From Albidovulum marisflavi (GTDB lineage: Bacteria > Pseudomonadota > Alphaproteobacteria > Rhodobacterales > Rhodobacteraceae), in NCBI RefSeq assembly GCF_025751435.1, contig NZ_JAOWKY010000004.1, forward strand, positions 310,001 to 374,000: 64,000 bases of DNA. Reading direction: 5' to 3'. Shown piece by piece: positions 40,935 to 47,262 of this stretch. Numbering within the stretch: position 1 is the stretch's first letter; every line of letters starts with the position of its first letter. Under the pieces are notes generated by a model. That model made no database searches and was not told where the DNA came from. It was given only the letters and a program-made list of their open reading frames with translations. The position numbers and the translations under genes were made by a program.

Positions 40935-41378
40935 ATGAGCGACAGCGACCTCATAAAGCTCTATTCGCAACGCATCCTTGCGCTTGCGGCGGATATTCCT
41001 CATCTGGGCCGTCTGGACCATCCCACCGCCACCGCGCGCCGCCGCTCTCCGCTTTGCGGATCGACGGTCGCCGTCGATCTTGACGTCAAGGACGGCAAGA
41101 TCACCAACTATGCTCAGGATGTGAAGGCTTGCGCCTTGGGTCAGGCCGCCGCGGCCGTGGTCGGCGACGTGATCATTGGCCGCACGCGTGCCGAGGTGGA
41201 AAGGGCCCGCGACGAGTTGCGCGCAATGCTGAAGGAAAATGGCCCCGTCCCGTCCGAACCCTTCGCAGGGCTGGAGGTGCTGCTGCCGGCGCGCGATTAC
41301 AAGAATCGTCACGCTTCGATAATGCTTGCGTTGGAAGCTGCGGCAGAGGCCTTTGCCAGCGCCGAGGCCGCAGCTTAA
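40935..41378 (+). CDS. NifU/IscU-like protein lacking one cluster cysteine
   Basis: 147 aa from the ATG at 40935, preceded by GGGGGA. It has the NifU_N/SufU fold with cysteines C41 (SPLCGSTV) and C66 (KACALG), but at the third conserved site, where IscU/SufU have Cys in a K/R-x-C-S/A context, it reads RHASIM (A127). This makes an ordinary three-Cys cluster site impossible, so it may only partly act as a scaffold. Divergent from hisI. The stop is immediately followed by the minus-strand terminator of the 40-aa peptide gene. Confidence 0.85.
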   Translation: MSDSDLIKLYSQRILALAADIPHLGRLDHPTATARRRSPLCGSTVAVDLDVKDGKITNYAQDVKACALGQAAAAVVGDVIIGRTRAEVERARDELRAMLKENGPVPSEPFAGLEVLLPARDYKNRHASIMLALEAAAEAFASAEAAA

Positions 41379-41413
41379 AAAAAACCGCCGCGCGTCGATC
41401 GACGGCGGCGGCA
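41377..41413 (-). terminator. Strong terminator of the 40-aa peptide transcript
   Basis: On the minus strand a GC-rich hairpin (GCCGCCGCCGTCGATCGACG, continuing CGCGGCGG) is followed by eight Ts. It overlaps the last codons' stop of the plus-strand NifU-like gene. The direction is clearly minus. Confidence 0.85.
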
Positions 41414-41548
41414 GTCAGCAAGTTCTCCAAGAAACCCCGAGACTGGGCGGCATGCTTGGGGGAGCTGGCCGCGCATGACAGGCATGTCAGATGCCTGGGG
41501 GAGGCACCTTCGGGCGGGAAAACTGCGAGGCAGTTGAGGGATACGGGG
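41414..41548 (-). ncRNA. Structured 3' region, candidate sRNA with C-rich loops
   Basis: 135 bases between the peptide stop and the terminator, on the minus strand. In order: a 6-bp hairpin AACTGC-CTC-GCAGTT (41521-41535), a 7-bp hairpin with loop CCCCC preceded by CCT (41490-41508), a 5-bp hairpin TGACA-TGCC-TGTCA (41476-41489), and a broken stem (41449-41470) with loop CCCCCA. The CCTCCCCC words are complementary to Shine-Dalgarno sequences, resembling the C-rich loops of CcsR-type sRNAs in Rhodobacter. It may be processed from the peptide mRNA or just be its 3' UTR. Confidence 0.4.
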
Positions 41549-41671
41549 TCAAAGAAGACCGGGCAGGTGCAGTCCAACGATCAGCATGACGACCAGAGAC
41601 ACCAGCCCTGCTGCATCCTGCACAAGCGTCCCGGACGAACGGGCAATCACGGATTTCAGATCGAATTTCAT
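41549..41671 (-). CDS. 40-aa single-helix membrane peptide, probably SOS-controlled
   Basis: ATG at 41671 with GGAGG 6 bases upstream; stop TGA at 41549. The peptide begins MKFDLKSVIARSSGTLVQD and has one hydrophobic helix (about 19-40, AAGLVSLVVMLIVGLHLPGL). It is too short for the usual ORF cut-off. A perfect GAAC-N7-GAAC LexA-type operator lies 54-69 bases upstream. By analogy with known SOS peptides (SidA of Caulobacter, TisB of E. coli), an inner-membrane division inhibitor or toxin is conceivable, but nothing here proves it. Its own transcript ends at the T8 terminator. Confidence 0.75.
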   Translation of the reverse strand: MKFDLKSVIARSSGTLVQDAAGLVSLVVMLIVGLHLPGLL

Positions 41672-41725
41672 CGGAACCTCCACCTGAGTTGCCTATTTGT
41701 TCTCATATGATTCATCACTTGTAAA

Positions 41726-41740
41726 GAACTAAATGAGAAC
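41726..41740. promoter_or_regulatory. LexA (SOS) box upstream of the 40-aa peptide gene
   Basis: GAAC-TAAATGA-GAAC on the plus strand, i.e. GTTC-N7-GTTC on the minus strand, the exact alphaproteobacterial LexA consensus. A third GAAC follows at 41747 and a one-mismatch copy (GTTC-N7-ATTC) at 41699-41713. It lies between recG and the peptide gene, reading toward the peptide. Confidence 0.75.
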
Positions 41741-41761
41741 ATTTGTGAACGATGTGCCAAC

Positions 41762-46766
<5,005 letters not shown>

Positions 46767-46860: not shown

Positions 46861-47139
46861 CTATAGCTGTCTGAACTTCTGGATTTTTGTGACTTTAAGC
46901 GCGGTTGCACCATGCCGCGACACAGCCTCGAACCAAAGGTCAAGCTCTTCCTCCGAAAGCGCATAACGCTCAAGCGCCTCGCCCCGCGAAATCAACCCCG
47001 CGGCAAGCGCCTTGACGACCAGCGCCTTGCGGCTGGCCACCCAGCGGCAGGTATCTTTGGGCGGCAGGTCCGCCCGCGTCATCACGCTTCCATCCGGCAA
47101 GGTCACGGCACGTGGCCCGCTCACCCTTTTAAGGTACAT
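46861..47139 (-). CDS. sciP: CtrA inhibitor SciP
   Basis: 92 aa from the ATG at 47139 with AGGGGG upstream; an in-frame GTG 27 bases earlier is less likely. DUF1153-type small protein with RAVTLPDGSVMTRADLPP at the start and RYALSEEELDLWF plus the final KVTKIQKFRQL. SciP blocks CtrA-dependent transcription in Caulobacter. The ctrA gene lies 94 bases downstream on the same strand. Confidence 0.95.
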   Translation of the reverse strand: MYLKRVSGPRAVTLPDGSVMTRADLPPKDTCRWVASRKALVVKALAAGLISRGEALERYALSEEELDLWFEAVSRHGATALKVTKIQKFRQL

Positions 47140-47262
47140 CACGCACCCCCTTTTTATCACCACCAACGGCAGGATCGCGCGCTGTGCTTAAGGGACGGTG
47201 AAACCCGGCCTTGCGACTAGTTCGCATTTTCCTATATTCCCGCACATCTCGCGGAGAACGAA

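What the first reader, a model, noticed from the sequence alone, without database searches (positions are those of the whole stretch)
41549..41740. SOS-box-controlled 40-aa membrane peptide gene next to recG
A 40-codon gene with a GGAGG ribosome site and one hydrophobic helix is preceded by a perfect GAAC-N7-GAAC site, the alphaproteobacterial LexA operator. Known SOS peptides of this size and form block division or depolarise membranes (SidA, TisB). I know of no description of this peptide; it would be a damage-response effector in Rhodobacterales. The operator, gene and terminator are seen directly; regulation and effect are inferred.
Basis: partly seen in the sequence, partly recalled or inferred. 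Interest (0 to 1): 0.82.

Follow-up and report, generated by a model that had tools for sequence, protein, structure and literature searches.

The report
SOS transcript: membrane peptide plus RNA
Next to the DNA-repair gene recG, bacteria of one large marine and soil family carry a short gene that looks switched on by DNA damage; its message seems to encode a tiny membrane peptide and also to carry a conserved folded RNA, perhaps a two-part brake on cell division.

Summary
The 40-codon gene lies on the minus strand (41671-41549). A GTTCN7GTTC match alone means little here. Conservation counts: 257 of 296 family genomes carry the peptide; in a class-wide sample 8 of 387 match, six of them in the same family; 63 of 63 loci fetched by peptide keep the operator, a control pattern 0 of 63. 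In the own genome the triple half-site GTTC-N6-GTTC-N7-GTTC occurs twice: here and at lexA. A scan with the promoter pattern alone listed 80 loci; 78 have the peptide downstream. LexA control and peptide coding are well supported, by computation only.

The unnoticed half is the stretch between stop codon and terminator: a conserved multi-branched RNA without an Rfam match, with strong covariation in fitted alignments and in an alignment-free test, found in 45 of 150 genomes, once each, behind the peptide. Its repeated unpaired motif CUGCCUG(U) can pair with the ftsZ ribosome site (7 or more pairs in 37 of 41 genomes, 9 of 300 background starts); RNA and ftsZ do not covary.

Best reading: an SOS division brake of peptide plus RNA; the effect is inferred.

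The parts
41726..41750 (-). LexA operator: three half-sites GTTCACAAATGTTCTCATTTAGTTC (GTTC-N6-GTTC-N7-GTTC)
   Evidence: same triple array as the own lexA promoter; the only two such places in the own genome
41699..41725 (-). Promoter core: TTTACA (-35-like, 41725-41720) next to the operator, and conserved ATGAGAACAAA with an inverted GAAC half-site (41702-41699)
   Evidence: many columns invariant or nearly so in 59 distinct promoters; the sigma-70 consensus scan finds no promoter, so promoter assignment is inference
41677..41681 (-). Shine-Dalgarno GGAGG
   Evidence: a broad SD-like pattern in 168 of 176 loci
41549..41671 (-). 40-aa single-helix membrane peptide gene, conserved D19, G22, L26, L34, P37
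41377..41548 (-). Conserved structured 3' RNA with its terminator; the window's own copy is the genus variant
41525..41533 (-). CUGCCUCGC at the RNA's 5' end (repeated CUGCCU motif, first copy; its last bases enter P1)
41418..41526 (-). Closing helix P1: arms 41526-41517 and 41428-41418, enclosing P2 (41508-41490), P3 GACA-UGCC-UGUC (41488-41477) and P4 (41474-41447)
   Evidence: Single-sequence fold, places; swapped-arm test, same-genus part 19 of 20
41377..41412 (-). Rho-independent terminator (stem, then 8 U)
   Evidence: z -3.0; 153 of 155 unique loci have one, shuffled 6 of 155
41762..43849 (-). recG, same strand, upstream neighbour in 171 of 176 loci

Best explanation
The locus is one LexA-repressed transcription unit behind recG. 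DNA damage clears LexA from a three-half-site operator next to the promoter, and a short mRNA is made. Its first part is translated into a 40-aa inner-membrane peptide (N-terminus inside, one helix). Its second part, after the stop codon, folds into a conserved multi-branched RNA that ends in a terminator and shows CUGCCUG and CUGUCC in mostly single-stranded places. The most likely role is a division brake during SOS: the peptide acts on a membrane divisome protein such as FtsW, as SidA does in Caulobacter, and the RNA pairs with the ftsZ ribosome site and lowers FtsZ synthesis, as DinR does in Klebsiella. Shown by computation: conservation, coding, operator, RNA structure, linkage. Inferred: LexA binding, induction, membrane topology, both targets, and that RNA and peptide work together. 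Separate estimates: LexA control about 0.9, real peptide above 0.95, real RNA structure about 0.95, division inhibition by the peptide about 0.5, ftsZ as an RNA target about 0.35.
For: Peptide: 36 of 61 relatives at E<=1 (4 of these above 0.01), including 22 of 22 in the genus; 257 of 296 family genomes at E<=0.01. Of 39 family genomes without a profile hit, the 20 listed were searched for the promoter: 10 have the pattern and 7 of these carry a divergent short ORF of similar build, judged by eye; in one (L228) no recG is in the fetched stretch but promoter and peptide are kept. Coding. Motif D19 165 of 166, G22 165 of 166. LexA: 63 of 63 boxes, control 0 of 63; in the own genome the triple site is only here and at lexA, reversed control 0; own recA has GAACN7GAAC; 30 of 30 lexA promoters have the box; 78 of 80 listed promoter-pattern hits lead to the peptide. 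RNA: 91.8% of cells paired against 76.3% shuffled, 21 of 21 pairs with two-sided changes; 88.9% against 68.4%, 32 of 32; slid structures 32-48%; own P1 arms beat swapped arms in 111 of 122 sequences outside the training set; 67 of 67 hits of model R1 and 56 of 56 of R2 among the loci lie behind the peptide on its strand; 45 of 150 genomes have a hit, one each, 45 of 45 directly behind the peptide. Loops: CUGCCU mean unpaired probability 0.78, CUGUCC 0.67, all positions 0.44. ftsZ: CAGGC[AG]G before ftsZ in 36 of 41; background 0 of 44 (window) and 4 of 408 (family loci), 8 of 314 (own genome); CUGCCUGU forms 7 or more contiguous pairs, G-U allowed, in 37 of 41 against 9 of 300. SulA in 0 of 61 family genomes. 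Papers: SidA/DidA act on FtsW/I/N (PMC4211646, passages); YneA binds FtsW, and low-confidence AlphaFold 3 models suggest FtsW for SidA too (PMC13396833, passages); DinR (PMC10907235, passages); DicB/DicF (PMC10448788, passages).
Against: No expression, LexA-binding or phenotype data. The triple array is not general at lexA: 4 of 23 family lexA promoters have it. The fitted alignments A3 and A4 lean towards the structure; on the unfitted alignment of 18 the covariation is weak (score 0.114 against 0.102, 29 of 500 shuffles reach it; further pair types 22 against 22.7; though two-sided pairs 7 against 2.6). 105 of 150 family genomes give no hit with model R2 under strict filters, among them the own genome; a filter-off search shows only 5.9 bits at the locus, E 0.79, behind eight other places. 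ftsZ pairing: over the whole RNA the best ungapped duplex with ftsZ is only moderately better than background (median percentile 0.23, 5 of 26 at or below 0.05; 0.11 in the narrow window), own RNA does not pair better with own ftsZ than with that of other genomes (10 of 26), the commonest motif needs one G-U pair (its exact complement AGGCAG is in 3 of 41 ftsZ and 3 of 300 background starts), and 7 of 300 shuffled motifs do as well. ftsZ was the only division gene tried. G035 has the ftsZ motif without a detected peptide, G085 the peptide without the exact motif.
Confidence: 0.5

Rival explanations
1. The peptide is the sole effector (a SidA-like division inhibitor); the structured 3' region only stabilises the mRNA or tunes its translation.
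For: A conserved 3' structure with terminator can protect an mRNA (general knowledge); RNA and ftsZ do not covary.
Against: The repeated loop motifs are far above chance (CTGCCTG 163 against 7.2 in shuffles, 153 RNAs) and mostly unpaired, more than a stabiliser needs.
Confidence: 0.25
2. SOS-induced membrane-active toxin of the TisB or DinQ kind that depolarises the inner membrane and slows growth.
For: Size, one hydrophobic helix, positive N-terminal part, SOS operator.
Against: Single copy, in 257 of 296 family genomes, fixed place, strong residue-specific constraint (D19, G22, P37). No search for an antisense partner was made.
Confidence: 0.12
3. The RNA is a regulator or protein sponge with targets other than ftsZ (repeated CUGYCY motifs), and the peptide serves another SOS step, for example at RecG or in the envelope.
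For: Several copies of one motif per RNA (100 of 153 have two or more TGCCT); the commonest motif matches ftsZ only with a G-U pair.
Against: A near-complement of the motif at the ftsZ ribosome site in 36 of 41 genomes, rare elsewhere.
Confidence: 0.25
4. The operator belongs to another GTTC-binding regulator, not to LexA.
For: The promoter is conserved beyond the LexA box; the triple array is at lexA in only 4 of 23 family genomes.
Against: In the own genome the same triple array is at lexA and nowhere else; 30 of 30 lexA promoters have the GAACN7GAAC box.
Confidence: 0.07

Closest known systems
SidA of Caulobacter crescentus (29-aa SOS division inhibitor; PMC4211646, passages seen)
   Same: Very small, one membrane helix, LexA-controlled (Caulobacter motif GTTCN7GTTC, PMC12700426, passages), alphaproteobacterial
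   Different: No sequence relation tested (the SidA sequence was not obtained); the passages seen describe no conserved 3' RNA with it; apart from two weak partial matches the profile finds nothing outside one family in 387 class genomes
DinR of Klebsiella pneumoniae (sRNA from the 3' end of LexA-controlled dinI mRNA, represses ftsZ; PMC10907235, passages seen)
   Same: LexA-controlled mRNA of a small protein followed by an RNA whose exposed motif fits the ftsZ ribosome site
   Different: Different protein, different host class; here the RNA is found in many genera and covaries, whereas the paper calls the pairing stretch of DinR specific to Klebsiella; no experiment here
dicBF operon of E. 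coli (protein DicB and sRNA DicF, both division inhibitors; PMC10448788, passages seen)
   Same: One transcript giving a small protein and an RNA, both against division, the RNA at ftsZ
   Different: Cryptic prophage operon repressed by DicA, not LexA
Pos19 of Rhodobacter sphaeroides (219-nt coding sRNA; PMC5036791, passages seen)
   Same: Short transcript with a translated ORF and RNA-borne regulation in the same bacterial family
   Different: RpoE-controlled, the paper finds it only in R. sphaeroides strains, other targets
TisB / DinQ type I toxins (DinQ: abstract start in the listings; TisB recalled)
   Same: SOS-induced single-helix peptides
   Different: Those have antisense RNAs; none was looked for here

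Membership tests
LexA (SOS) regulon of Alphaproteobacteria | GTTCN7GTTC operator in the promoter | tested here: met
   63 of 63 loci, control 0 of 63; motif stated for Caulobacter in PMC12700426 (passages)
LexA (SOS) regulon of Alphaproteobacteria | Operator shared with the organism's own lexA | tested here: met
   only two triple sites in the own genome; 30 of 30 lexA promoters with the box, 4 of 23 in the family with the triple array
LexA (SOS) regulon of Alphaproteobacteria | LexA binding and induction by DNA damage | not testable with these tools
   No expression data
SidA-like SOS division inhibitors | Very small single-helix inner-membrane protein | tested here: met
   By hydropathy and charge only
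SidA-like SOS division inhibitors | Sequence homology with SidA | not tested
   Modell 2011 not held; SidA sequence not obtained
SidA-like SOS division inhibitors | Blocks division through FtsW/FtsI/FtsN | not testable with these tools
   No complex prediction available
SulA | Pfam PF03846 | tested here: not met
   Peptide: no Pfam family in 25 of 25 members at E<=0.1; SulA 0 of 61 family genomes, E. coli control positive
Type I toxin (TisB, DinQ) | Antisense RNA antitoxin | not tested
   No search for antisense transcripts was made
DinR-like SOS 3' RNA | RNA element in the 3' region of a LexA-controlled mRNA, ending in a terminator | tested here: met
   (LexA control itself by computation only)
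DinR-like SOS 3' RNA | Base pairing with the ftsZ ribosome site | tested here: inconclusive
   For. Against:
DinR-like SOS 3' RNA | Processing and Hfq dependence | not testable with these tools
   None
A known Rfam family | Covariance match above the gathering score | tested here: not met
   Searches (window 41300-41850; 20 loci): nothing at or above gathering

The most novel reading that the evidence does not exclude
A family-wide SOS checkpoint in Rhodobacteraceae made from one short LexA-controlled dual-function transcript: the encoded 40-aa membrane peptide stops the divisome at the membrane while the 3' RNA, through repeated CUGCCUG/CUGUCC loops, shuts off ftsZ translation at a conserved ACAGGCGG ribosome site.
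Probability: 0.3. Interest if true: 0.93.

Novelty: new variant of a known kind. Interest (0 to 1): 0.8.

Why it matters
SulA is found in 0 of 61 family genomes, and in the listings and passages I saw there was no SOS division inhibitor described for this family (searches; most subscription papers are not held). If right, this is that missing checkpoint for a widespread marine and soil family, and an old, covarying example of an SOS dual-function RNA, which makes the question of how such RNAs arise directly testable. Even if the division role is wrong, it is a family-wide peptide gene without a Pfam or NCBIfam family and a structured RNA without an Rfam family, behind a clear SOS operator.

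Tried and rejected
Rejected: chance operator (single-genome counts alone would have allowed it; conservation does not). Mobile or plasmid gene: a family-like peptide found no match in plasmids, PHROGs gave none for two peptides, PADLOC none. Known protein family: Pfam and NCBIfam gave only weak matches under their cut-offs (PmbA_TldD_2nd E 0.16; none; three NCBIfam models with one member each, E 0.012-0.045); PDB none. Known RNA: the weak suhB and ncS54 matches at the locus are below gathering, as are six Ysr141 matches elsewhere in the loci (best E 1.4e-6, 37 bits against a gathering score of 196).

A first MAFFT alignment of 101 family RNAs was too gappy to use. The fold job of the peptide was not finished and is not used.

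Rows dropped: of loci L009-L190, six gave no peptide at E<=1e-3 in the six-frame scan (L072, L073, L090, L110, L139, L166), so 176 rows; L110 does match in the narrower scan. RNAs: 153 of 155 unique loci with a terminator, 144 of these with a CTGCC anchor in the first 80 nt. Alignment A2 used 18 hand-picked loci of one subtype. The R1 and R2 searches used 97 of the loci plus the window; 11 of these 97 were in the training set. Of 39 family genomes without a profile hit only the 20 listed ones were searched for the promoter. In one search the 300 background starts are a random draw from the family loci L074-L153, which repeat a few gene families.

Full report
What is there. The minus strand behind recG carries, in order: three GTTC half-sites (41750-41726), TTTACA, a conserved ATGAGAACAAA block, GGAGG, a 40-codon gene (41671-41549), a 136-nt 3' region and a terminator (41412-41377). 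A GTTCN7GTTC match by itself is poor evidence: 5 in the window with 2.46 expected, 175 in the genome with 120 for the reversed pattern.

Conservation of the peptide. A single-sequence search found it in 36 of 61 genomes at E<=1 (4 of these above 0.01), including 22 of 22 of the genus. A profile found it in 257 of 296 family genomes, in single copy in all but one. In a class-wide sample 8 of 387 genomes match at E<=0.01; six are of the same family, the own genome counted, and the other two are partial and weak. Record titles from a later scan are nearly all Rhodobacteraceae/Rhodobacterales or unplaced Alphaproteobacteria. Purifying selection acts on this frame (pooled pN/pS 0.44; 1.26 and 1.84 in the others; 21 sequences). 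In 166 aligned peptides (159 found by profile, 7 divergent added by hand) D19 and G22 are each kept in 165, L34 in 161, P37 in 157, L26 in 152; the part before D19 is net positive (+1.5 on average), so an N-in helix is likely; helical periodicity of conservation is marginal (p 0.05). recG lies directly upstream in 171 of 176 loci; 3 are uninformative and in 2 it ends about 620 nt upstream.

LexA control. Within 260 nt upstream, 63 of 63 loci fetched by peptide have GTTCN7GTTC, control 0 of 63 (59 distinct promoters). The triple array GTTC-N6-GTTC-N7-GTTC occurs in the own genome exactly twice, at lexA and here, with the same GTTCNCAAATGTTCT left part. All 30 lexA promoters examined, 23 in the family and 7 outside, have the two-part box; the triple array is in 4 of the 23. 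Of the 20 listed family genomes without a profile hit (39 in all), 10 have the promoter pattern; 7 of those carry a divergent short ORF of the same build, judged by eye, in one of them (L228) without recG in the fetched stretch. The promoter region is conserved well beyond the LexA box; that remains only partly explained.

The 3' RNA. A strong terminator follows the stop codon in 153 of 155 unique loci (6 of 155 in shuffled sequence). In 18 sequences folded one by one, the stretch before it mostly takes the same shape: a single-stranded CUGCC start, a long closing helix P1, and hairpins P2, P3, P4; genus members have a shorter form. Folding is more stable than shuffles (median z -1.97 in 148; control stretch further on -0.09 in 152; coding part +0.66). 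A model from 18 sequences found 67 of 98 sources at E<=0.1, 11 of them in the training set, all 67 behind the peptide on its strand. Pair counts: 91.8% of cells paired (shuffled 76.3%), 21 of 21 pairs with two-sided changes; with the hand-drawn 32-pair structure, 56 of 98 sources at E<=0.01, 88.9% paired (68.4%), 32 of 32 pairs. These alignments were fitted to the structure; on the unfitted 18 the covariation is weak (score 0.114 against 0.102, though two-sided pairs 7 against 2.6). An alignment-free test avoids this: in 122 RNAs outside the training set the two P1 arms of one RNA pair more strongly than arms swapped between genomes in 111, including 19 of 20 of the window's genus (relatedness not corrected). 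Over 150 family genomes the model, with strict filters, rings once in each of 45 and not in 105; 36 of the 45 places lie directly behind peptide places printed (compared by eye), and the other 9 were fetched and also have the peptide. The window's own RNA is a genus variant that the model does not reach; it folds into a like shape, and the genus alignment supports P1 weakly (two P1 pairs with a two-sided change in 18 sequences). Rfam has nothing at gathering level.

The loops and ftsZ. CTGCCTG occurs 163 times in 153 RNAs (7.2 in shuffles) and CTGTCC 171 times (14.4); CUGCCU is mostly unpaired (0.78, CUGUCC 0.67, overall 0.44). Because DinR and DicF act on ftsZ, I looked at ftsZ and at no other division gene. 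Its ribosome site is conserved, mostly as CAGGCGG: CAGGC[AG]G in 28 of 30, 36 of 39 and, with three starts placed by hand, 36 of 41. Background: 0 of 44 window genes and 4 of 408 in family loci (these loci repeat a few gene families), 8 of 314 own-genome genes. CUGCCUGU can form 7 or more contiguous pairs (G-U allowed) with it in 37 of 41 against 9 of 300; 7 of 300 shuffled motifs do as well. The complement of the second motif, GGACAG, is in 13 of 41 ftsZ starts and in 3 of 314 own-genome genes. Four genomes without a detected peptide (G025, G034, G061, G070) lack the ftsZ motif and one (G035) has it; of 36 with the peptide, 3 of them divergent, 35 have it (Fisher p 2.4e-4, not corrected for descent). 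Against: the whole-RNA duplex ranking is only moderate (median percentile 0.23; 0.11 in a narrow window), and own RNA does not fit own ftsZ better than that of others (10 of 26), which may only mean that the site hardly varies but is no support.

Reading. LexA control, peptide and RNA are well supported as features. A role as an SOS division brake follows from the class of small SOS membrane inhibitors (SidA, DidA, YneA; DidA itself is SOS-independent), from SulA in 0 of 61 family genomes and from the ftsZ match; it is inference. Both the peptide-FtsW link and the RNA-ftsZ link need experiments. I saw no description of this unit in the searches (listings, and passages of some papers), in a library that lacks most subscription journals. 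The main texts of Koppenhofer 2019 on D. shibae LexA sites (PMC6473078) and of the P. denitrificans sRNA survey (PMC5107571) have 0 occurrences of recG; I saw passages of both, not the whole texts.

Noticed in passing
window 46059-46766 and 46861-47166, minus strand: A response regulator with CtrA-like sequence and a DUF1153 protein (SciP-like; both names recalled, Pfam domains) lie just beyond ligA and recG, so likely cell-cycle regulators neighbour the SOS unit.
   Followed up: partly
L228 (about 1480-1690): Promoter and divergent peptide kept without recG in the 1.5 kb upstream: probably a relocated copy of the unit.
   Followed up: partly
ftsZ leaders, loci L272-L312: Unusual Shine-Dalgarno region CAGGCGG conserved across the family in front of ftsZ, whatever its reason.
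   Followed up: yes
lexA promoters L234-L253, L255, L256, L191: TTGACACAAA followed by GAAC-N7-GAAC, so that the box would lie over the -10; many have a second or third overlapping box 11 bases further on.
   Followed up: no
promoter block 41699-41725: ATGAGAACAAA and a GCAAC behind it are nearly invariant over 59 promoters, beyond what a LexA box or a standard -10 needs.
   Followed up: no
G305: The only one of 257 positive family genomes with two peptide matches.
   Followed up: no
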